64,000 bases of DNA from Tabrizicola sp. GTDB lineage: Bacteria > Pseudomonadota > Alphaproteobacteria > Rhodobacterales > Rhodobacteraceae. The stretch is taken from NCBI RefSeq assembly GCF_016792905.1, contig NZ_JAEULP010000020.1, forward strand, positions 62,001 to 126,000, in the 5' to 3' direction. Under the pieces are notes generated by a model. That model was not told where the DNA came from. It made no database searches and worked only from the letters and a program-made list of their open reading frames with translations. Positions 49,129 to 61,216 of this stretch are shown in pieces. Position numbers and translations under genes: made by a program. Position 1 is the first letter of the stretch. Each line of letters opens with the position of its first letter.

Positions 49129-50727
49129 ATGAACGACAAGCACAACCAGCTTGACTGGATGGTGGCTGAGGCTGCCAAGGGCCGGATGACCCGGCGCGAA
49201 TTCGTCGGCCGCACGACGGCGCTCGGGGTATCGGCCGGGCTCGCCTCGGCGCTCTTCGGCAAGGCCGCGCGGGCGCAGGAGGCCAAGAAGGGCGGCGTGA
49301 TCCGCGTCGGCATGCAGGGGGGCGAGTCGACCAACAGCCTCGACCCGGCGCTGGCGGCGTCCGAAGTGCCGTTCCAGGTGAACATGACCTGGGGCGAGAT
49401 GCTCTGCGACGTGAAGCCGGACGGCTCGCTCGACATGCGGATCGCCGAAGAGGTTTCCTCGACGCCCGATGCCGCCGAATGGAAATTCAAGATCCGCCAA
49501 GGCGTGGAATACCACGGCGGCGGCACGGTGACGGCGGATGACGTGGTGGCGACGCTGAAGCGGCACACCGACGAGAAGGCGCAGTCGGGCGCGCTGGGGA
49601 TCGTGCAGGGCATTGCCGACATGAAGGCCGAGGGTGACATGGTCACGCTGAAGCTGAATGCGGCCAACGCCGACCTGCCCTATCTGATGGCCGACTATCA
49701 CCTGATCATCCAGCCGGGCGGCGGGGTGGACAACCCGACGTCAGGCATCGGCGCCGGCCCCTATGCGGTGGAGGTGAACGAGCCCGGCGTGCGCCACACC
49801 TTCAAGAAACACGCCAATTACTTTGACAGCACCATCGGCCATGCCGACGAGGTCGAGATCCTGGTGATCAACGACAACACCGCGCGGACGGCCGCATTGC
49901 AGTCGGGCCAGATCCACATGATCAACCGGGTCGACCCGAAGATCGTCGAGCTTCTGAAAGGCGCGGCAGGTATCCAGATCAAGGCGGTCGCGGGGCGGGG
50001 GCACTATGTCTTCATCATGCATGTCGACAAGGCCCCCTTCGACAACAACGACATGCGCATGGCGCTGAAATACGCGATCAACCGGCAGGAGATGGTCGAC
50101 AAGATCCTGGGCGGGCTGGGCAGCCGGGGCAACGACTTCCCGATCAACGCGGCCTATCCGCTGTTCGACGACAGCATCGAGCAGCGCGAGTATGACGCGG
50201 CCAAGGCGGCGGAGTACTACAAGAAGTCCGGCCACGATGGTTCGCCCATCATCCTGCGCACCGCTGCGGGCGCCTTCCCCGGCGCGGTGGATGCGGCGAA
50301 CCTGTTTGCCGCCTCGGCAAATGCGGCGGGCATCCCGCTGCAGGTGAAGCTGGAGCCCGACGACGGCTACTGGTCGAACGTCTGGAACGTCGAACCTTTC
50401 TGCGCGTCCTACTGGGGCGGGCGTCCGGTGCAGGACCAGATGTACACCACGGCCTACCTGTCCACCGCCGACTGGAACGACACCAAGTTCAAGAACGCCA
50501 AGTTCGACGAGCTTCTGCTCGCCGCGCGGGGTGAGCTGGACGCGGCGAAGCGCAAGTCGGAATACAGCGAGATGGCGCATATCCTGCGCGACGAAGGCGG
50601 CCTGATCCTGCCGATGTTCAACGACTTCGTCTCGGGGGTCAGCGACGTGATCGGCGGCTGGGCCGACGATCCGAACGGCGAGCTGATGAACGGACGCGCG
50701 CAGGTCCGTTGCTGGCTGAACGCCTGA
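49129..50727 (+). CDS. Peptide/opine-type ABC transporter substrate-binding protein (SBP_bac_5, DppA-like)
   Basis: 532 residues with ATG after GGGAGACCAGC. Twin-arginine signal: TRREFVGRTTALGVSAG, cleavage near ARAQEA, so exported folded by Tat. The mature protein has the SBP_bac_5 pattern (GGVIRVGMQGGESTNSLDPA, VEYHGGGTVTADDVV, GAGPYAVEVNEPGVRHTFKK, MRMALKYAINRQEMVDKIL). It captures peptides or similar solutes in the periplasm for the permeases that follow. Confidence 0.94.
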   Translation: MNDKHNQLDWMVAEAAKGRMTRREFVGRTTALGVSAGLASALFGKAARAQEAKKGGVIRVGMQGGESTNSLDPALAASEVPFQVNMTWGEMLCDVKPDGSLDMRIAEEVSSTPDAAEWKFKIRQGVEYHGGGTVTADDVVATLKRHTDEKAQSGALGIVQGIADMKAEGDMVTLKLNAANADLPYLMADYHLIIQPGGGVDNPTSGIGAGPYAVEVNEPGVRHTFKKHANYFDSTIGHADEVEILVINDNTARTAALQSGQIHMINRVDPKIVELLKGAAGIQIKAVAGRGHYVFIMHVDKAPFDNNDMRMALKYAINRQEMVDKILGGLGSRGNDFPINAAYPLFDDSIEQREYDAAKAAEYYKKSGHDGSPIILRTAAGAFPGAVDAANLFAASANAAGIPLQVKLEPDDGYWSNVWNVEPFCASYWGGRPVQDQMYTTAYLSTADWNDTKFKNAKFDELLLAARGELDAAKRKSEYSEMAHILRDEGGLILPMFNDFVSGVSDVIGGWADDPNGELMNGRAQVRCWLNA

Positions 50728-50737
50728 GGCGGGGCGC

Positions 50738-51694
50738 GTGCATCCGATCCTGAGACTTGTGGTCCAGCGCCTTGCGCTGGGCCTCCTCCTGCTCCTCGCC
50801 GTCTCGGCCGTGATCTTCCTGGGCGTCGAGGCGCTGCCGGGCGACACGGCTCAGGCGATCCTGGGGCAACAGGCCACGCCCGAGGCGCTGGCCAACCTGC
50901 GCGAGAAGATGGGGCTGAACCAGCCGCCCCTGACCCGGTATTTCCAGTGGCTCGGCGGTATCCTGACCGGCGACCTGGGCCATGCGCTGACCAACGGCGC
51001 CGACATCGCGCAATCCATCGGGCAACGTCTTGGCAACACTTTGTTCCTGGCGGGCTGCGCGGCCGTGATCGCCGTGCCGCTGGCGATCCTTCTGGGCCTC
51101 ATCGCCGCCCGATATGCCGGGCGCTGGCCTGACAAGCTGATCTCGGGCGTAACGCTGACAACGATCAGCCTGCCGGAATTCGTCGCAGCCTATTTCGTGA
51201 TCTATCTCCTCACCCAATTGATCCCGATCTTCCAGCCCGTCGCCATGGTCTTCCCCGGCATGGGCTTCTGGGAAAAGCTGCACGCCGTCGCCCTGCCGGT
51301 CATCGTCCTTGTGCTGGTCGTCCTGGCCCACATGATGCGGATGACCCGCGCGGCGATCCTGAACGTCATGCAGTCGGCCTATATCGAGACGGCGGAACTC
51401 AAGGGCCTGTCGCCGATGACGATCATCTGGCGCCACGCTTTCCCGAATGCCATCGCGCCGGTGGTCAGCGTGGTGATGCTGAACCTTGCCTATCTGGTCG
51501 TCGGTGTCGTCGTGGTCGAGGTGGTGTTCGGCTACAACGCCCTTGGCCAGTACCTGGTCGACCATGTGACCAAGCGCGACCTGCCGGTGGTGCAGGCGGT
51601 GGGGCTGATCTTCGCCGCCGTCTACATCTTCCTGAACATGCTGGCCGACATCATCGGCATCCTGGCCAACCCGCGTCTGAGGCACCCGAAATGA
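50738..51694 (+). CDS. Peptide ABC transporter permease 1 (DppB-like)
   Basis: 318 residues, GTG start 10 bp after the SBP stop. Six transmembrane helices with the EAA loop at YIETAELKGLSPMTIIWRHAF. N-terminal MHPILRLVVQRLALGLLLLL and LPGDTAQAILGQQATPE are typical of DppB. Pairs with the next permease in the membrane. The stop overlaps the next ATG in ATGA. Confidence 0.95.
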   Translation: MHPILRLVVQRLALGLLLLLAVSAVIFLGVEALPGDTAQAILGQQATPEALANLREKMGLNQPPLTRYFQWLGGILTGDLGHALTNGADIAQSIGQRLGNTLFLAGCAAVIAVPLAILLGLIAARYAGRWPDKLISGVTLTTISLPEFVAAYFVIYLLTQLIPIFQPVAMVFPGMGFWEKLHAVALPVIVLVLVVLAHMMRMTRAAILNVMQSAYIETAELKGLSPMTIIWRHAFPNAIAPVVSVVMLNLAYLVVGVVVVEVVFGYNALGQYLVDHVTKRDLPVVQAVGLIFAAVYIFLNMLADIIGILANPRLRHPK

Positions 51695-52506
51695 GGCTTC
51701 CGCTTTCCGCCCTCATCGGCCTTGTCCTGACCGGGAGCTTCCTCTTCATCGCGGTCTTCGGGCACTGGATCGCGCCATGGCCCATCGACGACAGCTCCGG
51801 CGGCCAATGGGAGGGCATGTCGGCTGCGCACTGGCTGGGCACCGACACCATCGGCCGCGACATCCTGAGCCGCCTGATCTATGGCGCGCAGATCACCATC
51901 TTCGTGGCACTGGCTTCGTCCATCCTGGCGTTCTCGCTCGGGGCCTTCCTGGGCTTCCTTGCCGCCGTGAAGGGGGGATGGATCGACCAGATCCTGTCGC
52001 GGGTCGTCGATCTGATCATGGCGGTGCCCTCGCTGATCGTCGCGCTGGTCATGCTGTCGGTCCTGCCGCTGAACCTGACGGTCCTGATTCTGGTCATGGG
52101 CATCCTCGATTCCACGCGCGTCTTCCGCCTGTCGCGCGCCGTGGCCGTCGACATCGCCGTCATGGACTATGTCGAGGCCGCCAAGCTACGGGGCGAGAAG
52201 GGCACCTGGGTGATCTTCCGGGAAATCCTGCCGAACGCGCTGTCGCCGCTGGTCGCCGAGTTCGGGCTCCGTTTCATCTTCGCGGTCCTGTTCATCTCGA
52301 CCCTGTCCTTCCTTGGCCTTGGTGTGCAGCCGCCGCTGGCGGACTGGGGCGGGATGGTGAAGGAGAACAAGGACGGGCTGATCTACGGCAAGTCCGCTGC
52401 GCTCCTGCCCGCCGCCGCGATTGCCGCGCTGGCGATCAGCGTGAACCTGGTGGCGGACTGGATCCTGACCCGCACCTCCAGCCTGAAAGGAGGCCGCGGT
52501 GGCTGA
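51691..52506 (+). CDS. Peptide ABC transporter permease 2 (DppC-like)
   Basis: 271 residues; ATG overlaps the DppB stop (ATGA). Six helices; EAA loop at YVEAAKLRGEKGTWVIFREI and the DppC N-terminal domain (HWLGTDTIGRDILSRLIYGA). Its 3' end overlaps the ATPase gene's GTG by 8 bp, so all subunits are translated in coupling. Confidence 0.95.
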   Translation: MRLPLSALIGLVLTGSFLFIAVFGHWIAPWPIDDSSGGQWEGMSAAHWLGTDTIGRDILSRLIYGAQITIFVALASSILAFSLGAFLGFLAAVKGGWIDQILSRVVDLIMAVPSLIVALVMLSVLPLNLTVLILVMGILDSTRVFRLSRAVAVDIAVMDYVEAAKLRGEKGTWVIFREILPNALSPLVAEFGLRFIFAVLFISTLSFLGLGVQPPLADWGGMVKENKDGLIYGKSAALLPAAAIAALAISVNLVADWILTRTSSLKGGRGG

Positions 52507-54133
52507 TCCCCTGCTTCTGATCAAGGGCCTTGTGATCGAGGCCACCTCCTACCCGCCGGGGGAACCCCCGAAGAATGTGACGCTGGTGCATGGCGTTGAC
52601 CTGACGTTGCAGAAGGGCAAGGTCCTGGGGCTGATCGGCGAATCCGGGGCTGGCAAGTCGACCATCGGGCTTTCGGCCATGTCCTACGGGCGCGGCGGGG
52701 TGCGGCTGACCGGGGGCACGATCCATCTGAACGGGCGGGAAATCCGGCTCGCCTCGCACAAGGACCTGCGGGAGCTGCGGGGGCGCGAAGTCACCTATGT
52801 CTCGCAATCGGCGGCGGCGAGTTTCAACCCGGCCAAGCAGATCATGGAGCAGGTGATCGAGACCTGCCTGAGCCACGGGCTGTGCAGCAAGGCCGAGGCC
52901 GAGGCCCGCGCCCGGGGGCTGTTCAAGAAGCTGGGCCTGCCGAACCCCGACACCATCGGCAACCGCTATCCGCACCAGGTTTCCGGCGGGCAGTTGCAGC
53001 GCTGCATGACGGCGATGGCCCTCTGCCCGAAGCCCGATCTGGTGATCTTCGACGAACCGACGACCGCGCTGGACGTGACGACGCAGATCGACGTGCTGGC
53101 CGCGATCAAGGAGGCTATCCGCGACACCCATGTCGCTGCCCTGTATATCACGCACGACCTTGCCGTGGTGGCGCAGGTCGCCGACGAGATCATGGTGCTG
53201 CGTCATGGCCGGATGGTGGAGCTGGGCGAGACCGGGCAGATCATCCATGCCCCCACGCAGGACTATACCAGGGCGCTGGTATCGGTCCGCGGGCTGGAGC
53301 ATACCGAGAAATCGCCTGCCCCGCCGGTGTTGCAGGTCGCGAACATCACGGCCCGCTATCGGGGTACCAGTTTCGACGTGCTGAAGAACGTCTCGGTCGA
53401 CCTGCCCGCCGGGCAGACGCTGGCGGTGGTGGGCGAATCGGGCTCGGGCAAGTCGACGCTTGCACGGGCGATCACCGGGCTGTTGCCGCCCACGCAAGGG
53501 CGGATCACCTTTGCCGGTCGGCAGCTGTCGGCGGATTTGGCGGGGCGCAGCAAGGACGACCTGCGCGAGATCCAGATGATCTACCAGATGGCCGACACCG
53601 CGATGAACCCGCGGCAAACGGTCGGGACGATCATCGGGCGGCCGCTGGAGTTCTACTTCGGGCTGAAAGGAGCCGAGCGCGACCGGCGGGTGCAGGAGCT
53701 TCTGGACCAGATCGAGATGGGCAAGGGCTTCGCGCAGCGTTATCCGGCGGAACTGTCGGGCGGGCAGAAGCAGCGGGTCTGCATCGCGCGGGCACTGGCG
53801 GCGAACCCGAAGCTGATCATCTGCGACGAGGTGACATCGGCGCTGGATCCGCTGGTGGCGGACGGGATCCTCAAGCTTCTCCTGAACCTGCAGGCCGAGG
53901 CGCATGTGGCCTATCTGTTCATCACCCATGACCTTGCCACCGTGAAGGCCATCGCCGACAAGATCGCGGTGATGTTCAAGGGCGCGGTCGTGCGCTACGG
54001 CCAGAAATCCGACGTGCTGACCCCGCCCTTCGATGACTACACCGACCTGTTGCTCAGCTCGGTGCCCGAGATGGAGCTGGGCTGGCTGGAGCAGGTGATC
54101 GCGCATCGCAGGATGGAAAGCGCGGGGAACTGA
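52499..54133 (+). CDS. Fused double ATPase of a peptide ABC transporter (DppD-DppF in one chain)
   Basis: 544 residues, GTG start overlapping the permease by 8 bp. Two complete ATPase modules: Walker [10 protein letters not shown] at residues 47-55 and GESGSGKST at 312-320; signatures VSGGQLQR and LSGGQKQR; Walker B LVIFDEP and LIICDEV. Classical Dpp/Opp systems use two separate ATPase genes, so this is a gene fusion, seen in YejF-type and some alphaproteobacterial systems. It powers uptake by the preceding permeases. Confidence 0.95.
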
Positions 54134-54245: not shown

Positions 54246-55079
54246 GTGACCAAACTTCTTCTCATCATCCTTGACGGCGTGCCCTACCGGAACTGGCGGC
54301 GGCTCTTCGGCAACCTCGAAGGCTGGGTCGAACAGGGCCATGCTCGGGTCCGGAAGATGCGCGCGGTGCTGCCTTCGACTTCGGCCTCTTGCTACGCCTC
54401 GATCCACACCGGCGTGCCGCCGCAAGATCACCTGATCTGGGACAACGCGGACATCCGGCGGCTGGAATTTCCCGATGTTTTCAGCGAATTGACCCGCGCG
54501 GGCAGGAAAACGGGGGCGGTGACGCACAGCTACTGGTCCGAGTTCTTCAACCGCGCGCCTTTCGACGTGGTCCGCGACATCGAATATGACGAGCCCGAGG
54601 GGCCGATCACCCATGGCCGCTTCCACACCATGCGCGGCTACGGTCATGCAAACCAGATGACGCCCGCCGACTACGACCTGTTCGGAACGCTGACAAGGCT
54701 GTGCGAAGTCAAGGGGATAGACTACGGCATCCTGCATACCTGCACGCTGGACAGCATGGGCCACCGTTTCTTCCACGACTGCGAGGAGATGGATCACGCC
54801 TGCTTCCACTTGGACGCGATTCTTGCGCCGTTCATCCACCGCTGGCGGCAGGACGGGTACGAGGTGATCGTCACCGCCGACCACGGCCAGGACGCGCGGG
54901 GGCATCATGGCGGGACGGGTGAGGAGCAGCGTGACTTTGCGTTTTACTATTTCGGGAACAGTGCCTTGCCTGGCGAAGATGAAGTTCTGGATCAACTTGC
55001 CCTTGCGCCTTCGATCCTGACCCGGATGGGCGTGCCGGTCCCGTCCACGATGACGGCAAAGCCCTTCTTCACGCCCTGA
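54246..55079 (+). CDS. Alkaline-phosphatase-superfamily protein (type I phosphodiesterase/nucleotide pyrophosphatase-like)
   Basis: 277 residues, GTG start (MTKLLLIILDGVPYRNW). Metal-site residues: D in LILDG-like IILDGVP, nucleophile Ser/Thr in LPSTSASCYAS, DxxGH in CTLDSMGHRFF, and TADHGQD. These are the AP-superfamily binuclear zinc ligands. Substrate unknown (phosphodiester or phosphonate). Follows the peptide ABC operon with a hairpin repeat between, so it may be the last member of that operon. Confidence 0.9.
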   Translation: MTKLLLIILDGVPYRNWRRLFGNLEGWVEQGHARVRKMRAVLPSTSASCYASIHTGVPPQDHLIWDNADIRRLEFPDVFSELTRAGRKTGAVTHSYWSEFFNRAPFDVVRDIEYDEPEGPITHGRFHTMRGYGHANQMTPADYDLFGTLTRLCEVKGIDYGILHTCTLDSMGHRFFHDCEEMDHACFHLDAILAPFIHRWRQDGYEVIVTADHGQDARGHHGGTGEEQRDFAFYYFGNSALPGEDEVLDQLALAPSILTRMGVPVPSTMTAKPFFTP

Positions 55080-55146: not shown

Positions 55147-55164
55147 CCCGGCGCCTTGTGCAAC
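55147..55164 (+). promoter_or_regulatory. Shared 18-bp motif before the BTAD regulator gene
   Basis: CCCGGCGCCTTGTGCAAC, ending 31 bp before the BTAD start. The same motif with two changes lies at 57693-57710 before the YcaO gene. A TGAAA lies a few bases upstream in both, and both are followed by GGTC. Possible site of the BTAD regulator or another regulator of the cluster. Confidence 0.45.
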
Positions 55165-55195
55165 GCTGGTCGCGAGGTTTCGGGGGACCTCCTGC

Positions 55196-57214
55196 ATGTT
55201 CCGGTTTCAAGTCGATCTCCTGGGCTCTTGCCGGGTCGCCCGCATCGCGTCGGGCGAGGAGGTTGCGTTCAAGACCCGCAAGACGCGCTGCCTGCTGGGG
55301 CTCTTGCTGTTGAGCCCGGGATGCCGGATGAACCGGGAGCAGCTGGCCTCGCTGCTGTGGGACCCCGCGCCCGAGGCGCTGGCGCGCTCGAGCCTGCGGC
55401 AGGCGTTGCGCGAGTTGCGCGAGGTGCTGGGTCCCGAGGACGAGGATCTGGTGGAGGCCGACCGCTTTTCGGTCGGGCTGAAAGGTGCTTCCTTTGCGCT
55501 GGACGTGCGGCGGTTTCGCGAGCTGATTGCCACCAGCACACATGACCAGAATGCGCTCCTGTCAGCGGCGGCGCTTTGGCAGGGCGAGCTGTTCGGTCCT
55601 GCCCAGCCCGCGGCACCGGTCTTCGAAGCCTGGTTGCAGATCGAACGGTCGCAACTTCGGTCGGTCCTGACCACGGCGCTGACCGACCAGCTGGAAAAGC
55701 TGATCGCCGCCAATGCCTTCGCCGACACCCGCATCGCCGAGGAGCTGGTGCGGATCGAACCCTCGCACGAGCTTGCGCACCAGTTTGTCATGCGCTTCCA
55801 CGCGCTACGCGGCGACCAGTCGGCGGCGCTGAGGCAGTTCGGCCTCCTGGAACAGGCGCTGGCCGAAGAGTTGGACAGCGAGCCGAGCGAGGCCTCGAAT
55901 GCGCTTCTGGTCGCAATCAAGAGTGGCGAGGTGTCCCTGCAACGCCCGATCACCACACCCGCACCAGACCGGGCCCCGCTGACGCGCAACGGCCCGCCCC
56001 GGATCACGATCCGGCCGCCACTGACCCGCTACACGGATGCGAGCAAGGACTACCTTGGCGAAGGCTTTGCCTTTCTTGCCAAGTCCTGCCTGTCGAAGTT
56101 CCGCTGCTGGATCGTCATCCCCTGGCCGTCAAGCGGCTTCGACTCGGCTGCGGTCGTCGACTTCACGGCCGTGGGCAGTGCCATCGACGCCGATTTCGCG
56201 GTGGACTGCGTGCTGGACTGGCGCACGGGCGGCGGCAAGCTGTTCGTCACCCTGATCGACTGCCGCGACGGCAGCGAGGTCTGGTCGCATCTCTTCCCGG
56301 TGGCCGAGCACGAGTTGCAGGAGATCAGCTCGTCCGTCGCGGGGGCGGTGGCGGCGAACCTGGCGTCGCAGGTCAACCACATCACGCTCCTGCGCCACGC
56401 CCGCAGCACGCCCGGCAATCCGGTGGCCTATGACCTGTGGCTGAAGGGGCACCAGCTGTCGCGCCTGTGGTCGGCCGAGGCGGATGCGGAAGCCGAGGCG
56501 ATGTTCCTGCGCGCGATCGAGCTGGACCCGGGTCTTGCGGGCAGCCATGCGAGCCTGGCGCAGGTCCTGTCCACCCGGAGCATGGTCCGACCCGGGTACC
56601 CGAACCGCAAGGCCGATTGTGCCAAGGCGTTCAAGCACGCGCGGGAGGCCATCGCGCTCGACCCCTATGACCCGCGCTGTCATATCAGCATGGCCTGGAA
56701 CTGGGCGATTGCGCGGTCGCCCGAGCGGGCGAATTCGCATTTCCGGCTGGCGGTGGACATGAACCCGAATGATGCCGAAACCCTGATCGCCGCGGCAAGC
56801 GGGCTGGGCTTCCTGGGTCATGCGACCGAGGCCCGGGAACTGGCCCTCCAGGCGGTCAGGCTGAACCCGATCTATCCGGAATACTACACCGCCTATCTCG
56901 CCGGCATTCATTTCATGGCGGGCGACCATGCCGCGACCATCGCCACGGTCGAGAAATGCCCCGACGGCTTCCCCGACCTCGGGGTGTGGGCGGTGGCGTC
57001 CTTCGCGCATCTGGGGCGGGCGGGAGAGGCCGGGGCGGCCTATCGCACCTTCCTCCGCATCGCGAGCCAGATGTGGGAGGGTCCTGCCAACCCTGACGAA
57101 GAGGCGCTGGAGACCTGGGTGGTCGAGAGCCTGCCGATCTGCTGGCCGGAAGGTCGGCTGAGCCTGCAAAAGGGCCTGCGGCTCGCCCGCGACATGGCGG
57201 CCGAGCACGCCTGA
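55196..57214 (+). CDS. SARP/BTAD-type transcriptional regulator with TolB-like and TPR regions
   Basis: 672 residues. N-terminal OmpR-like winged helix about 3-95 (FKTRKTRCLLGLLLLSPG, SSLRQALRELREVLG), BTAD about 100-245 (DVRRFRELIA ... ALRQFGLLEQALAEELDSEP), a central beta/alpha region about 265-400 resembling the TolB-like domain found beside TPRs in cyclase-type and CadC-type regulators (AVGSAIDADFAVDCVLDWRT), then TPR repeats about 430-600 (AEAMFLRAIELDPGLAG, FRLAVDMNPNDAETLIAAAS). BTAD regulators typically control a neighbouring biosynthetic cluster. ATG after GGGGGACCTCCTGC. It lies on the same strand as YcaO and peroxidase genes. Confidence 0.88.
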   Translation: MFRFQVDLLGSCRVARIASGEEVAFKTRKTRCLLGLLLLSPGCRMNREQLASLLWDPAPEALARSSLRQALRELREVLGPEDEDLVEADRFSVGLKGASFALDVRRFRELIATSTHDQNALLSAAALWQGELFGPAQPAAPVFEAWLQIERSQLRSVLTTALTDQLEKLIAANAFADTRIAEELVRIEPSHELAHQFVMRFHALRGDQSAALRQFGLLEQALAEELDSEPSEASNALLVAIKSGEVSLQRPITTPAPDRAPLTRNGPPRITIRPPLTRYTDASKDYLGEGFAFLAKSCLSKFRCWIVIPWPSSGFDSAAVVDFTAVGSAIDADFAVDCVLDWRTGGGKLFVTLIDCRDGSEVWSHLFPVAEHELQEISSSVAGAVAANLASQVNHITLLRHARSTPGNPVAYDLWLKGHQLSRLWSAEADAEAEAMFLRAIELDPGLAGSHASLAQVLSTRSMVRPGYPNRKADCAKAFKHAREAIALDPYDPRCHISMAWNWAIARSPERANSHFRLAVDMNPNDAETLIAAASGLGFLGHATEARELALQAVRLNPIYPEYYTAYLAGIHFMAGDHAATIATVEKCPDGFPDLGVWAVASFAHLGRAGEAGAAYRTFLRIASQMWEGPANPDEEALETWVVESLPICWPEGRLSLQKGLRLARDMAAEHA

Positions 57215-57224
57215 ATACCTGCCT

Positions 57225-57605
57225 TCAGCGACAGTGGCGCATGAAATAGCGGGCGAGCAGCACCTTGAAGCGCACGTTCTGCGGGCCGCCATAGCTCGGC
57301 TCGTCCTCGACTTTCGGTGGGGTCTTCAACAGGCCCGACCACGGGATGCGGACGTGCATCCGGTTCGGAGTGTCGTAGACCGGCACGATTTCCACGCTGT
57401 CCGGAATCTCGCCATTCGGCCCGGCGCCGGGGCCGTCGTAGCGGTAGCCGTTGGCGTGAAGCCAGCCGCGGGTGTCGTCGTTGAACTTCTTCCATTCCGA
57501 CGTGGCCGTATCCTTGAAGGCCGACTTCGAGACCCGCATGATCGCCTCGCCCGTCGCGACCTGATCGGCCAGTGCATCGCTTTTCAGTTTGAAAAACCCA
57601 ACCAT
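57225..57605 (-). CDS. Hypothetical protein inside the YcaO cluster (126 aa)
   Basis: ATG with GAGAGGGCGG upstream (MVGFFKLKSDALADQVATGE). Mostly soluble, with charged helices near the N-terminus and a basic end (FKVLLARYFMRHCR). No signal peptide, no obvious domain, and no Ser/Thr/Cys-rich core, so it does not look like a RiPP precursor. It points opposite to its neighbours, between the BTAD regulator and YcaO; both neighbours' shared motifs flank it. Role unknown. Confidence 0.7.
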   Translation of the reverse strand: MVGFFKLKSDALADQVATGEAIMRVSKSAFKDTATSEWKKFNDDTRGWLHANGYRYDGPGAGPNGEIPDSVEIVPVYDTPNRMHVRIPWSGLLKTPPKVEDEPSYGGPQNVRFKVLLARYFMRHCR

Positions 57606-57692
57606 TCCGCCCTCTCTCCCTCTGTTCGGTCTGCCGCCGCGCCTCGTTCCCGACATCACTATTCGTCCGTTCCGTGATGGCAGCGTGAAATG

Positions 57693-57710
57693 CCCGGCGC
57701 CTTGCGCAAT
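57693..57710 (+). promoter_or_regulatory. Shared 18-bp motif before the YcaO gene
   Basis: CCCGGCGCCTTGCGCAAT, ending 41 bp before the YcaO start and 88 bp before the divergent 126-aa gene. Matches the motif at 55147-55164 at 16 of 18 positions. A weaker CCTTGCGCA occurs at 60655 before the lipoprotein. Confidence 0.45.
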
Positions 57711-57751
57711 CCGGTCTTGATCGGACATCGCAACGGCACTCCTATGCAAGC

Positions 57752-58816
57752 ATGAAACAGAACCAGGCGGAACTGATCGCGCGGATGGGGCCTGCGCTGG
57801 CGACGGATTTCTCCGTCGTGCCCTTGGATGCGCCGGATGCGCCGCTGTTCCTGGCCGTGGCCCTGCCGAACAGCGAAGGCGTGACCGGGCTCAAGCCGCG
57901 CCTGCCCGCGGGGCGCGGGATGACGATGGCGCAGGCCCTGCTTGCAGCGGGAGCCGAGGCGCTGGAACTGCGGTCAAGCCTGGCGCAGCACCACCTGGCC
58001 GAACTTGCCGCACTGCCGCGCAGGGACGGGCTTGCCAGGGTGACGGCGACGGACATGCTGAGCGGTGAACCGGTGGAGGTGCCCGCGCAGCTTGTCTACC
58101 TGGACTGTGCGGCAGTGCTGTCCGAGCCACTGGTGAAGGACGCGGATTCGACGGGTTGCGCGACGGGTGCGGACCGCGACGGCGCCATTGCGGCCGGGCT
58201 CTGGGAATGCGTGGAGCGGGACGCCGTCGCGCTGTGGTGGCATGGCGGCCGCCCTGCGGCTCCGCTGCCGCTTGACCTCATCGACGAACACCAGCCACGG
58301 CTGTTCTGGTGGCTGCACCAGCGGGCGCGACAGACTTTGCTTCTGGACCTGACGACCGACATCGGCCTGCCCGTGGTGGCGGCCGTTTCCGCCGATGCCG
58401 ACGGGCGGGTGGTGGCGACCGGCACGGCCGCGAGGCCGGTTCTGGAAGACGCCGCGCTGGCCGCCGTGACCGAGATGGTTCAGACCGAGGTGGGCATGGA
58501 GCTTGCGCGCGAGGCTGGGGATCCGGAGGTCCTGGCCTGGATCGGCCAGGCCTCGACCGGGCGCCAACCGCAATTTGCACCCGCCGCCCCGGCGAGGGAG
58601 CCGGACGTCTCGCTGGATCGGGAAGGGCTTCTGACCCGCCTGGCCGGGCTTGGTCACCGGGCGCTTGCGGTGGATCTGACGCTGCCCGGCGACCCCCTGC
58701 CAAGCCTGCGCGTCCTTGTGCCCGGCCTTTGCGCGATGCGCGGAGGGACCGACACGTCCCGCTTTGCCCGGCTTTGCCCGAAAGCCTCGGGCCTGAACCT
58801 GCCTGAACCCTACTGA
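57752..58816 (+). CDS. YcaO-family ATP-dependent peptide-modifying enzyme
   Basis: 354 residues. YcaO ATP/Mg motifs: STGCATGADRDGAIAAGLWE with E152-x-x-E155-R156 (WECVERDA) and later ExxQ at E241-Q244 (AAVTEMVQTE), then RVLVPGL near residue 320. YcaO enzymes use ATP to activate peptide backbone amides, forming azolines, amidines or thioamides, or act in ribosomal S12 methylthiolation. The C-terminus LNLPEPY lacks the full PxPxP of azoline-forming cyclodehydratases, and no E1-like or TfuA partner is present. Followed after 21 bp by a haem peroxidase gene, so the two are probably one operon. No strong ribosome-binding site is seen. Confidence 0.88.
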   Translation: MKQNQAELIARMGPALATDFSVVPLDAPDAPLFLAVALPNSEGVTGLKPRLPAGRGMTMAQALLAAGAEALELRSSLAQHHLAELAALPRRDGLARVTATDMLSGEPVEVPAQLVYLDCAAVLSEPLVKDADSTGCATGADRDGAIAAGLWECVERDAVALWWHGGRPAAPLPLDLIDEHQPRLFWWLHQRARQTLLLDLTTDIGLPVVAAVSADADGRVVATGTAARPVLEDAALAAVTEMVQTEVGMELAREAGDPEVLAWIGQASTGRQPQFAPAAPAREPDVSLDREGLLTRLAGLGHRALAVDLTLPGDPLPSLRVLVPGLCAMRGGTDTSRFARLCPKASGLNLPEPY

Positions 58817-58837
58817 TTCCTGCACGAGGGCCCCGCG

Positions 58838-60529
58838 ATGCCGCCGATCACGAGCACGCACAACCTGATCGACCGGGAGGATGCGCGCCCGACCCTTGCA
58901 GCGGCCCGGTCCAGATCGCGCTACACCTACCTGTTTCCGGCGCTCGCCGAAGACCCGCTGGTCGGCTGCGTGACCGGAACCACCGCCAGGGCGACCTGCG
59001 ACCGGCTGCGCGCCTTCGAGATCGCCAGCCGCGTTCCACTGAGCGGGATGCCGGTGGTGCAGATGAAGCTGCCGGCGGCCTACACCTATTTCGGCCAGTT
59101 CGTGAACCATGACATCTCTGCCCCGACGGGCGATGTGGTGACACAGCACGGCTGGACGGCGGCGGCAGGCGTCATCGGCGCGGTCGATCCGCCGGGCCTT
59201 GACCGGAACCGGCGAGCGAAGCCGTCGATCATCCTGGACAACCTCGCCAACGAACACCCGGAGCCGCTGACGCTGTCCAGCCTTTACGGCGACGGCCCGG
59301 AAAGCGCAGACCCGGAGATCCGGGCGCTGTATCATGCCGATGGCAAGCGGTTTCGTCTGGGGCAGACCCGACGCGAGGCGGACGCGGTCTTCACCAACCT
59401 CCTGATAAACCCCGCGCGCGTGATCCATGCGACCGGCGCGCCGGACATTCCGCGCGCGGCCGGTGTGCCGCAGCTTGCAGATCGCCGCAATGACGAGAAC
59501 CTGATCCTCAGCCAGCTGCACCTGGCGCTGATGCTTCTGCACAACAAGGCCGTGACCGCGCTTGAGCCGCAGGTCCCGGACGCCGCCGAATGCTTTCGTC
59601 AGGCACGGCAGCTTGTGACCCGGCATTACCACTGGCTGATCCTGAACGACTACCTGCCCCGGCTTCTGTCGACCGCCGTCACGGGCAAGCCCCTGTCCCG
59701 ATGGCCGACCCGCCTGACCGAAGCCAACCGCGTGCCGCTGGAATTCACCACCGCCGCCTTCCGGTTCGGGCATTCGATGGTCGGGGCAGCCTATGATTTC
59801 AACGCGAATTTCGGGGTGAACGGTCGCATATCCGACACCGGGGCCACGCTGGAGGACCTCTTCGCCTTCACCTCGCATGGCAACATGCAGGCCAGCCTGC
59901 CCGGCGCGCATGCCCTGCCCGACCATTGGGTGATCGACTGGAAGCGCATGACCCGGGTCCTGCCGCAACCGGCGCACGGCGCCCCGCGCGACTTCGGCAG
60001 CGCCGAGCGGATCGACCTCACCTTCGCGCGGGACATGCTGAACATCGTCGGGGATTCCACGGCGGCGGTGCATGGCTCGATCCTGTTCCGCAACCTGATG
60101 CGCGGCTTCCATCGCCGGATTCCGTTTGGACAGCGTCTCGCCGGCGAGTACGGCGTTGCGCCGCTGAGCGAAGACGAGGTCCGCATGGCGCTTCCGGATG
60201 ATGGCCTGCTGCCGCCCGGCACCCGGGGCCTGCGCGAGACGGCGGCGACGCTTGGCTTCCTGCGCGAAACCCCGGCCTGGCTCTACTTCCTGTGCGAAGC
60301 CCGCGCCCGCGAGAATGGCGAGCGCGTCGGGCCGACGGCCAGCCACATCATCGCCGACACCATCGTCGGGCTGATCCGGCTGAACCCGGCCTCCTATCTC
60401 AATCTGGACGGCGGCGGCTGGCATCCGAGGGAGTCGGTGCTGGGCAGGTCTTCTGCAGGCGGGCTGACGACGATCCGCAAGCTGCTGGTCTTTGCGGTGC
60501 AGGACAGCGTGCCGCCGGTCGGGGGCTGA
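58838..60529 (+). CDS. Animal-type haem peroxidase
   Basis: 563 residues. Distal His is H91 in YFGQFVNHDIS; catalytic Arg/Glu region LADRRNDENLILSQLHLALM; proximal His is H312 in AFRFGHSMVGAAY. These are the An_peroxidase motifs. It uses hydrogen peroxide to oxidise halides or phenolic groups, or to modify peptides. No signal peptide is seen, so it may act in the cytoplasm or leave with help. It is co-directional with YcaO 21 bp upstream; pairing suggests an oxidative tailoring step, but this is inference. Confidence 0.93.
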   Translation: MPPITSTHNLIDREDARPTLAAARSRSRYTYLFPALAEDPLVGCVTGTTARATCDRLRAFEIASRVPLSGMPVVQMKLPAAYTYFGQFVNHDISAPTGDVVTQHGWTAAAGVIGAVDPPGLDRNRRAKPSIILDNLANEHPEPLTLSSLYGDGPESADPEIRALYHADGKRFRLGQTRREADAVFTNLLINPARVIHATGAPDIPRAAGVPQLADRRNDENLILSQLHLALMLLHNKAVTALEPQVPDAAECFRQARQLVTRHYHWLILNDYLPRLLSTAVTGKPLSRWPTRLTEANRVPLEFTTAAFRFGHSMVGAAYDFNANFGVNGRISDTGATLEDLFAFTSHGNMQASLPGAHALPDHWVIDWKRMTRVLPQPAHGAPRDFGSAERIDLTFARDMLNIVGDSTAAVHGSILFRNLMRGFHRRIPFGQRLAGEYGVAPLSEDEVRMALPDDGLLPPGTRGLRETAATLGFLRETPAWLYFLCEARARENGERVGPTASHIIADTIVGLIRLNPASYLNLDGGGWHPRESVLGRSSAGGLTTIRKLLVFAVQDSVPPVGG

Positions 60530-60718
60530 GGCTGGCGCAAACCTGCCACGCCGGACCTGCATCCGGGTCATGTTTGCCCGCCCCGTGCCCGCGCCCCCCT
60601 AGACAGTCGCGCGAATCCGATTCATAGACGCCGCGATGCGGGCGGCGGGAGTGTCCTTGCGCACAGCCGCCAATGCCGCCCCACTGCCGTCGTTGTCCTT
60701 GCACAGAAGACCACGCCC

Positions 60719-61216
60719 ATGACCGCCGAACCACTTGGCCACCCGGATCGCCAGGCCCGCCGCAATCGCCACCCGTGGATGATGGCCGCGCTCTTGATCC
60801 TGCCGCTCGCGGCCTGCGCCAGCGGGACCAGCCCGATGCAGCTTTACCCGCTTCAGGGCGAGATCGCCGACAAGGACCCGACGCTGGTCATCCAGGCGAC
60901 GGCGAAGAACACCACCAGCACCTCGGGCGACCTGACTTTCCGGCTGCCCGAGCGCGGCAAATGCCTGGGCACCTGGTCTTCGCTGACCCCCCGCACCGTG
61001 TCGAACACCAAGGGCCTCTCCCTGACCTGGAGCAAGACCGGCGGCGAGGTGGGCAAGGAAAGTTCGACCGTCGCCGGGGTGAACAACGGCGAGATCTATG
61101 CCGTCTGCGCCGACGGAACGCGGGTGCAGGGTACCTTCGTCATCGGATCGGGCACAGCCAGCGGCACGGGCCAGGCGTCGGACACCAACGGCAACGTCTA
61201 CAAGCTGCTGTTCTAG
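60719..61216 (+). CDS. Lipoprotein of unknown function (165 aa)
   Basis: Arg-rich N-region, hydrophobic helix and lipobox LPLAAC with Cys33 (MTAEPLGHPD ... LLILPLAACASG); an inner ATG at residue 21 is possible. The mature protein is beta-rich and Thr/Ser/Gly-rich with two more Cys (GKCLGTW, YAVCADG) likely disulfide-bonded. No known domain. It ends the cluster, 190 bp after the peroxidase, and its stop shares CTAG with convergent aroB. Confidence 0.82.
   Translation: MTAEPLGHPDRQARRNRHPWMMAALLILPLAACASGTSPMQLYPLQGEIADKDPTLVIQATAKNTTSTSGDLTFRLPERGKCLGTWSSLTPRTVSNTKGLSLTWSKTGGEVGKESSTVAGVNNGEIYAVCADGTRVQGTFVIGSGTASGTGQASDTNGNVYKLLF

What the first reader, a model, noticed from the sequence alone, without database searches (positions are those of the whole stretch)
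55147..61216. Candidate uncharacterised peptide-modification cluster: BTAD regulator, YcaO enzyme, animal-type haem peroxidase, lipoprotein
The sequence shows a YcaO gene (E152xxE155R and ExxQ ATP motifs intact) 21 bp before an animal-type haem peroxidase gene, with a large SARP/BTAD-TPR regulator and an unknown 126-aa gene upstream and a lipoprotein downstream. YcaO enzymes modify peptide backbones and BTAD regulators usually control secondary metabolism. There is no E1-like, TfuA or dehydrogenase partner, the C-terminus lacks a full PxPxP, and no precursor peptide is visible, so this is not a standard TOMM locus. A YcaO-peroxidase pair is a plausible new RiPP-type or protein-modification system.
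Basis: partly seen in the sequence, partly recalled or inferred. Interest (0 to 1): 0.75.

Follow-up and report, generated by a model that had tools for sequence, protein, structure and literature searches.

The report
YcaO-peroxidase cassette with C-terminal-cysteine protein substrate
Next to a peptide-backbone-modifying enzyme and a haem peroxidase, this bacterium carries a small unknown protein whose next-to-last residue is a cysteine, and the same set of genes recurs in related bacteria, so the small protein looks like the dedicated target of an uncharacterised protein-modification pathway.

Summary
The genes are real: BTAD-TPR regulator (55196-57214 +), 126-aa gene (57225-57605 -), YcaO (57752-58816 +), animal-type haem peroxidase (58838-60529 +). 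The pairing is not chance: 35 distinct loci (window included; some closely related) hold YcaO, peroxidase and a regulator (BTAD-TPR in 33, cyclase-TPR in 2) in shuffled orders. The "unknown 126-aa gene" is the constant fourth member: a small, very divergent protein whose penultimate residue is Cys in 33 of 35 loci (two end Cys-x-x-Cys), typically ...YLLGTIxxRRCR or ...GDYTIxxCx. Seen first in 22 loci, the motif was met again in 11 of 13 found later. Such a protein also sits beside two related YcaOs without the peroxidase. The lipoprotein is not part of it. Best reading (chemistry inferred): YcaO activates the amide before the C-terminal Cys, probably giving a thiazoline, and the peroxidase oxidises the product or uses the modified protein. 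TfuA is absent from the genome; the S12-accessory model matches E. coli YcaO but not this one. Nine searches of an open-access library listed no paper that I could link to a YcaO-haem peroxidase system.

The parts
55196..57214 (+). wHTH-BTAD-TPR regulator (672 aa)
   Evidence: Pfam BTAD 7e-13, TPR_17 9e-7, Trans_reg_C 1e-4 but below its cut-off; homologue by profile A8 in 33 of 35 cassettes; L022's carries an N-terminal cyclase domain
57225..57605 (-). 126-aa candidate substrate/precursor protein, ends ...LLARYFMRHCR
   Evidence: no Pfam/NCBIfam match; dN/dS 0.05-0.30; counterpart with penultimate Cys in 33 of 35 cassettes
57228..57251 (-). codons of the C-terminus RYFMRHCR; Cys-125 codon 57231-57233
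   Evidence: the Cys is invariant in the 22-row alignment A9
57606..57751 (.). 146-bp stretch between the divergent substrate and ycaO genes, presumed shared promoter region
   Evidence: gene coordinates; inference
57752..58816 (+). YcaO enzyme (354 aa), stand-alone, ATP-binding motifs intact; no RRE- or E1-like domain among its Pfam/NCBIfam hits
58838..60529 (+). animal-type haem peroxidase (563 aa); distal His-91, distal Arg-217, proximal His-312; no signal peptide seen by eye

Best explanation
A four-gene alphaproteobacterial cassette for modifying the C-terminus of a dedicated small protein. Shown: YcaO, haem peroxidase, a BTAD-TPR (or cyclase-TPR) regulator and a small protein with a near-invariant penultimate Cys recur together, and such a small protein also accompanies two related YcaOs without the peroxidase. 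Inferred: the partner-less YcaO recognises the folded body of the small protein and ATP-dependently activates the backbone amide just before the penultimate Cys, closing a thiazoline (less likely a thioamide); the H2O2-dependent peroxidase, whose gene usually lies directly upstream of the substrate gene and is once fused to it, then oxidises this site or uses the modified protein as a subunit; the regulator controls expression.
For: 35 distinct loci with YcaO+peroxidase+regulator+small protein. Penultimate Cys in 33 of 35, against 180 of 6165 ORFs >=100 aa in the loci held. Allowing any ORF >=100 aa near the peroxidase, 10.3 of 35 loci would show one by chance; nominal P(>=33) about 6e-16, too small because loci are related and the gene was first picked by this feature. 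Motif defined on 22 loci, then met in 5 of 5 new order-level loci (two are congeners of the window), 2 of 4 class-level (68, 69) and 4 of 4 new phylum-level (114; two are of one genus). 28 of 35 small genes follow the peroxidase gene on its strand within 73 bp, overlapping or fused. L051 and L200: YcaO + Cys protein without peroxidase. Catalytic residues: peroxidase distal and proximal His 31/31, Arg 29/31; YcaO Glu motifs nearly invariant. YcaOs can act partner-free on Cys (PMC8442711, passage) and on folded proteins (PMC13063428, PMC12455567, passages).
Against: No chemistry is shown. Residue -3 and the last residue vary; only the Cys is fixed. L161 and L166 end CxxC instead, and L161's YcaO falls outside the other cassette YcaOs in the wider tree (weak fork, 73). 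L199's YcaO falls inside the group but none of the three partners was found within 20 kb. L039's YcaO has E155->Q, L142's R156->S. Homology between small-protein subgroups is weak: hhalign aligns only the last 18 columns of window type and main type (E 0.007, probability 5.5%). The AF2 model of the window protein is poor (pLDDT 51.5). Several loci contain other ORFs with a penultimate Cys that look like chance frames.
Confidence: 0.55

Rival explanations
1. A classical RiPP: the small protein is a long, folded (NHLP-like) leader plus C-terminal core; after YcaO and peroxidase tailoring the C-terminal piece is cut off and exported as a natural product.
For: YcaO + divergent precursor + regulator fits; weak hhalign similarity of the window type to four NHLP leaders over IPDSVEIVPVYDTPNRMHVRIP (E 2.4e-4, probability 44%); L161/L166 end in a Cys-containing tail after an NHLP-looking body (judged by eye, hhalign only E 0.002, probability 12.5%).
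Against: 19 distinct small proteins scanned match no RiPP-precursor model; no protease or exporter was recognised among flank gene clusters shared by 3 or more of 23 loci (rough method); unlike NHLP families, whose core is hypervariable (PMC4603692, passage), here the C-terminus is the conserved part.
Confidence: 0.2
2. The small protein is a peroxidase subunit or regulator and its C-terminal Cys works unmodified (haem/metal ligand, redox switch); YcaO modifies the peroxidase or something else.
For: The small gene directly follows the peroxidase gene in 28 of 35 loci and is fused to it in L030.
Against: A Cys protein persists beside related YcaOs without a peroxidase in L051 and L200, so it tracks YcaO as well.
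Confidence: 0.15
3. YcaO thioamidates the substrate (sulfide-dependent) rather than making an azoline.
For: Partner-free YcaO thioamidation of a folded protein is known for E. coli YcaO/uL16 (PMC13063428, passages).
Against: The only constant residue is a Cys, an azoline-forming residue; no TfuA in the genome, though E. coli has none either (PMC13063428, passage).
Confidence: 0.15
4. Chance neighbours: a housekeeping YcaO (ribosomal protein modification) that happens to lie next to a peroxidase.
For: Several thousand Pseudomonadota are predicted to thioamidate uL16 with a YcaO (PMC13063428, passage).
Against: Recurrence in 35 loci with shuffled gene order; present in 4 of 6 listed congeners only; no match to NF040716, which matches E. 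coli YcaO.
Confidence: 0.02

Closest known systems
Stand-alone (partner-less) YcaO enzymes of bottromycin and streptamidine clusters
   Same: YcaO without fused E1/RRE partner acting on a dedicated gene product; one bottromycin YcaO makes a thiazoline from Cys without a partner (PMC8442711, passages)
   Different: Substrate here is a 126-237-aa protein with only the C-terminus conserved; haem peroxidase instead of a flavin dehydrogenase; no transporter or peptidase gene recognised as conserved
E. coli YcaO - uL16 thioamidation
   Same: YcaO without RRE modifies a folded protein (PMC13063428, passages)
   Different: Substrate encoded near YcaO, fast-diverging, accessory; Cys at the presumed target; no NF040716 match
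NHLP (proteusin-type) precursors with YcaO cyclodehydratases (e.g. MprE/MprC)
   Same: Long structured leader recognised as a folded protein by a YcaO (PMC12455567, passages); faint profile similarity
   Different: No TIGR03793 match in 19 small proteins; MprC carries an RRE (PMC12455567); cores hypervariable there (PMC4603692)
Bacterial animal-type haem peroxidases
   Same: Pfam An_peroxidase, catalytic His/Arg/His kept
   Different: Coupled to YcaO and a small Cys protein; no signal peptide seen by eye

Membership tests
YcaO superfamily | YcaO domain with ATP-binding Glu motifs (E69xxE72, E152xxE155R, E241xxQ; motif roles recalled) | tested here: met
   Pfam 140.7 bits; motif columns across 31 homologues
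TOMM/azole cluster | E1-like/ocin-ThiF (RRE) partner and FMN dehydrogenase beside YcaO | tested here: not met
   none among Pfam hits of the seven window proteins scanned; none recognised among genes shared in 23 loci. RRE-Finder was not run
TOMM/azole cluster | YcaO makes azolines on the precursor | not testable with these tools
   needs mass spectrometry
TfuA-associated thioamidating YcaO | TfuA gene adjacent | tested here: not met
   no TfuA (PF07812) match in the genome; the search rang in Methanosarcina acetivorans as control (assembly 92.9% complete)
Ribosomal-protein YcaO (E. coli type, S12/uL16) | match to NF040716 / grouping with E. coli YcaO | tested here: not met
   E. coli YcaO 917 bits to NF040716; window, L042 and L201 YcaO no match; E. 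coli YcaO falls among non-cassette rows, on a long branch
NHLP RiPP precursor | TIGR03793 leader model | tested here: not met
   19 distinct small proteins scanned (18 of 35 cassettes plus L051), none matched; hhalign E 2.4e-4, probability 44% for the window type, weaker for others
RiPP | leader removed by proteolysis, modified core released | not testable with these tools
   no protease recognised as conserved in flanks
Animal haem peroxidase superfamily | distal His, distal Arg, proximal His (roles recalled) | tested here: met
   H91 and H312 31/31, R217 29/31
SARP/BTAD regulators | wHTH + BTAD | tested here: met
   BTAD over cut-off; wHTH 22.8 bits, below its 26.2 cut-off

The most novel reading that the evidence does not exclude
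YcaO builds a protein-derived redox cofactor: a thiazol(in)e at the C-terminal Cys of a small protein that serves as the dedicated, permanently modified partner (in one case the fused domain) of a haem peroxidase - a protein-based peroxidase cofactor system of a kind that I know no description of.
Probability: 0.2. Interest if true: 0.9.

Novelty: new variant of a known kind. Interest (0 to 1): 0.76.

Why it matters
[quoted passage not shown] This cassette supplies a candidate substrate, a candidate modified residue (penultimate Cys) and a partner oxidase in one family, with dozens of natural variants, so the question becomes testable by one co-expression and mass-spectrometry experiment. It would add a haem peroxidase to the enzymes linked with YcaO chemistry and a protein-sized, C-terminally conserved substrate class.

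Tried and rejected
Lipoprotein as cluster member: rejected; it lies near aroB in the congeners G336 (8 bp) and G395 (about 1 kb), which gave no match to this YcaO (aroB confirmed as 3-dehydroquinate synthase). Known fold for the small protein: AF2 of the L042 protein pLDDT 76.9, pTM 0.75 (three of the five models 61-64), order strand-helix-helix-four strands-two helices, RRCR just after the last helix at low confidence; Foldseek against PDB gave no match at E<=0.001 (best 0.64); the window's own protein modelled badly (51.5) and was not searched. NHLP membership: tested, weak. Defence system: five proteins, no PADLOC match. PHROGs: five small proteins, best E 0.0096, unknown function. Other conserved flank genes: in 23 loci, clusters shared by 3 or more loci were the cassette genes, the window group's own synteny, ABC-transporter-like families and a 5-locus family, of which the three ORFs scanned are LysR regulators. 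That method keeps the longest non-overlapping ORF and lost several true genes behind antisense frames, so it can miss genes. ORFs ending in Cys near 75 non-cassette YcaOs looked like chance frames and were left aside; 16 such loci, mostly non-actinobacterial and including the later L162, L199 and L200, were looked at again with a composition filter and only L200 gave a convincing one.

Papers: PMC13063428, PMC8442711, PMC5589413, PMC12455567, PMC4603692 and PMC8776678 were seen as find-passages only; every other paper only in search listings. Searches listed no paper that I could link to YcaO with a haem peroxidase; of the five papers holding YcaO, peroxidase and RiPP I looked into one (PMC8776678: the words stand in unrelated passages); some searches listed only 15 of 49, 12 of 37 and 12 of 231. 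The library holds open-licence PMC papers only. Haem-peroxidase residue roles and YcaO motif roles are recalled.

Small slips: alignments A10 and A11 used a window row shifted by one codon; A12 corrects it; A11 was used for the L042 model, whose query row is correct. Several small-protein starts are uncertain (e.g. L202, L204). L164's YcaO lies near the contig end and is cut.
Full report
Observation. The region holds a BTAD-TPR regulator (55196-57214 +), a 126-aa ORF on the minus strand (57225-57605) ending 10 bp from it, a divergent YcaO gene (57752-58816 +) and, 21 bp on, an animal-type haem peroxidase gene (58838-60529 +). This is the only Pfam YcaO match in the genome and no TfuA match exists in it. 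The YcaO is nearest to SagD-type (TIGR03604), McrA-thioamidation (TIGR03266) and general YcaO (TIGR00702) models, all under their cut-offs. As a control, E. coli YcaO scores 917 bits to the S12-accessory model NF040716, while the window, L042 and L201 YcaOs do not match it.

Does the pairing recur? In 198 genomes of the family, 17 had a relative of this YcaO, at 19 places; I fetched 16 of the 18 places outside the own genome and 7 of the 16 carried peroxidase and regulator within the stretch. Two plasmids gave the first distant cases: Mesorhizobium huakuii NZ_CP139859 and Rhodobacteraceae QY30 CP023455. In a quick YcaO tree of 98 rows the 75 non-cassette YcaOs are split off by one branch (SH-aLRT 99), leaving the 22 cassette rows and L051 on the other side. 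A second tree of 59 rows with E. coli YcaO and later loci is less clean: 29 of 30 cassette rows lie on one side of a weak fork (73) with L051, L200 and one non-cassette row (L199); L161 lies on the other side, with E. coli YcaO and the other 25 non-cassette rows. Several rows are long branches, the roots are unknown, and the scan query A6 came from cassette rows.

The fourth gene. Each of the 22 distinct cassettes of that stage, the window included, has a small gene whose product has Cys next to the C-terminus. The M. huakuii and QY30 cassettes have the four genes in different orders, so plain synteny does not explain it. In 22 aligned proteins (21 of the 22 cassettes, the fused L030 left out, plus L051) only the start Met and this Cys are invariant, although identity to the window protein is 11-26% except for two near relatives at 83 and 98%. 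On loci found afterwards: order level, 5 of 5 new (L137, L138, L139, L141, L142; L138 and L141 are congeners of the window; L140 repeats L047); class level, 2 of 4 (L163, L164 yes; L161, L166 end Cys-x-x-Cys); phylum level, 4 of 4 new (L201-L204; L201 and L202 are of one genus; L198 repeats L050). Total 33 of 35. In the loci held (overlapping copies and the small genes included), 180 of 6165 ORFs of 100 aa or more have a penultimate Cys. If any ORF of 100 aa or more near the peroxidase could serve, 10.3 of 35 loci would show one by chance; at least 33 has a nominal probability of 6e-16, too small because loci are related and because the gene was first picked by this feature. Indeed several loci also hold other penultimate-Cys ORFs that look like chance frames. 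Independent of the motif: the window gene is under purifying selection (dN/dS 0.05-0.30 in six pairs); small proteins of five and of three loci match each other by BLAST; in 28 of 35 loci the gene follows the peroxidase gene on the same strand within 73 bp, overlapping or fused.

Link to YcaO and to the peroxidase. L051 (Mesorhizobium metallidurans) has the YcaO and, 29 bp upstream, a 155-aa protein ending IFKRCR, with no peroxidase hit in the 21 kb held and a cyclase-AAA-TPR protein in place of the BTAD regulator. L200 has YcaO, a BTAD-like regulator and a convergent 195-aa protein ending VLFGCR, without peroxidase. Conversely L030 has the small protein as the C-terminal part of the peroxidase ORF (663 aa...GDYTIAQCK). 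So the Cys protein is tied to both enzymes. Not every stand-alone YcaO fits: L199 and L162 showed no such protein, although L199's YcaO groups with cassette YcaOs.

Enzymes. In 31 peroxidases (35 less L201-L204, found later) distal His91, Gln87, Arg309 and proximal His312 are invariant and distal Arg217 is kept in 29. In the YcaOs E69, E72 and E152 are kept in all 30 rows not cut; E155 in 29 of 30 (L039 has Gln), R156 in 29 of 30 (L142 has Ser). The YcaO C-terminal tail is not conserved (window LPEPY).

Distribution. Matches to A6 at E<=1e-40: order 16 of 390 genomes, of which 10 are cassettes (all 10 read, the window included) and 6 have 770-875-aa open frames that I did not fetch; class 18 of 385 genomes at 19 places, 8 stretches fetched, 4 cassettes besides the window; phylum 12 of 398 genomes at 13 places, 7 stretches fetched, 5 cassettes including one repeat. 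These are lower bounds: the YcaOs of L032 and L039 score only 106 and 56 bits to A6. The cassettes seen carry labels of the window's family or class, or alphaproteobacterial titles (L045 is titled only 'Proteobacteria bacterium'); the nearest named relative of the window is a Tabrizicola MAG (L100), so Alphaproteobacteria is an inference for the G genomes. Of the 6 congeners listed, 4 have it, the window included. In the two without, lipoprotein and aroB are present close together, while the phosphodiesterase gene next to the regulator (54246-55079) is also missing: the cassette is accessory and the lipoprotein is not part of it.

What the small protein is. No Pfam family over its cut-off in 23 of the 35 (plus L051) and no NCBIfam family over its cut-off in 18 of the 35 (plus L051); the rest were not scanned. 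Sub-threshold hits include an EF-hand (E 0.006) and an autotransporter-barrel model (15.9 bits, cut-off 16) in L022. Three C-terminal types: YLLGTIxxRRCR (main; the window's LLARYFMRHCR is a variant), GDYTIxxCx, and HHLIRSCASC. Profile comparison suggests a faint relation of the window type to NHLP leaders, none worth claiming for the main type. A model of the L042 protein is fair, of the window protein poor, with no PDB match for the former.

Mechanism. Background: YcaO phosphorylates a backbone amide attacked by a neighbouring Cys/Ser/Thr side chain or by sulfide (PMC5589413, passages); it can act without partner on Cys (PMC8442711, passage), on precursors with folded NHLP leaders (PMC12455567, passages) and on a folded protein (PMC13063428, passages). 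A fixed Cys at the C-terminus of a small protein encoded near a partner-less YcaO therefore points to cyclodehydration at that Cys. The peroxidase could oxidise thiazoline to thiazole, oxidise neighbouring residues, or use the modified tail. All of this is inference; the genetic association is what is shown.

Known or new. Nine literature searches listed no paper that I could link to a YcaO-haem peroxidase system, in an open-licence library, with most listed papers not opened. As a system I rate it a new variant of YcaO-dependent modification.

Noticed in passing
window 49129-54133 and 54246-55079: A peptide/nickel-type ABC transporter set and a phosphodiesterase-like gene directly upstream; the phosphodiesterase gene is missing together with this YcaO in congeners G336 and G395, so both may belong to one accessory block.
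   Followed up: partly
L030 12421-14412 -: Peroxidase and small Cys protein fused in one 663-aa ORF.
   Followed up: partly
L051 9411-14112 and L200 8969-12699: YcaO plus C-terminal-Cys protein plus a regulator, without peroxidase.
   Followed up: partly
L199 9106-10488 -: A YcaO that groups with cassette YcaOs but has no peroxidase, BTAD regulator or convincing Cys protein in 20 kb.
   Followed up: partly
L204 5295-7034 and 11091-12857: Two haem peroxidase genes flank one YcaO cassette.
   Followed up: no
L022 7036-9549 -: Cassette regulator with an N-terminal nucleotide cyclase domain before BTAD-TPR; in L161/L166 a cyclase-TPR protein takes the place of the BTAD protein (in L166 the cyclase hit is below its cut-off).
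   Followed up: no
L050 8826-9944 and L052 8129-9067: Extra 312-372-aa ORF between regulator and YcaO in these two Rhizobium loci; L050's is a family 3 solute-binding protein.
   Followed up: partly
L161 8574-8984 - and L166 2722-3252 -: Small proteins of the YcaO-peroxidase tandem type look like NHLP leaders with a CxxC tail but match no model.
   Followed up: partly
L039 9354-10226 -: Shortened YcaO (290 aa) with E155->Q in an otherwise complete cassette; possibly inactive or altered.
   Followed up: no
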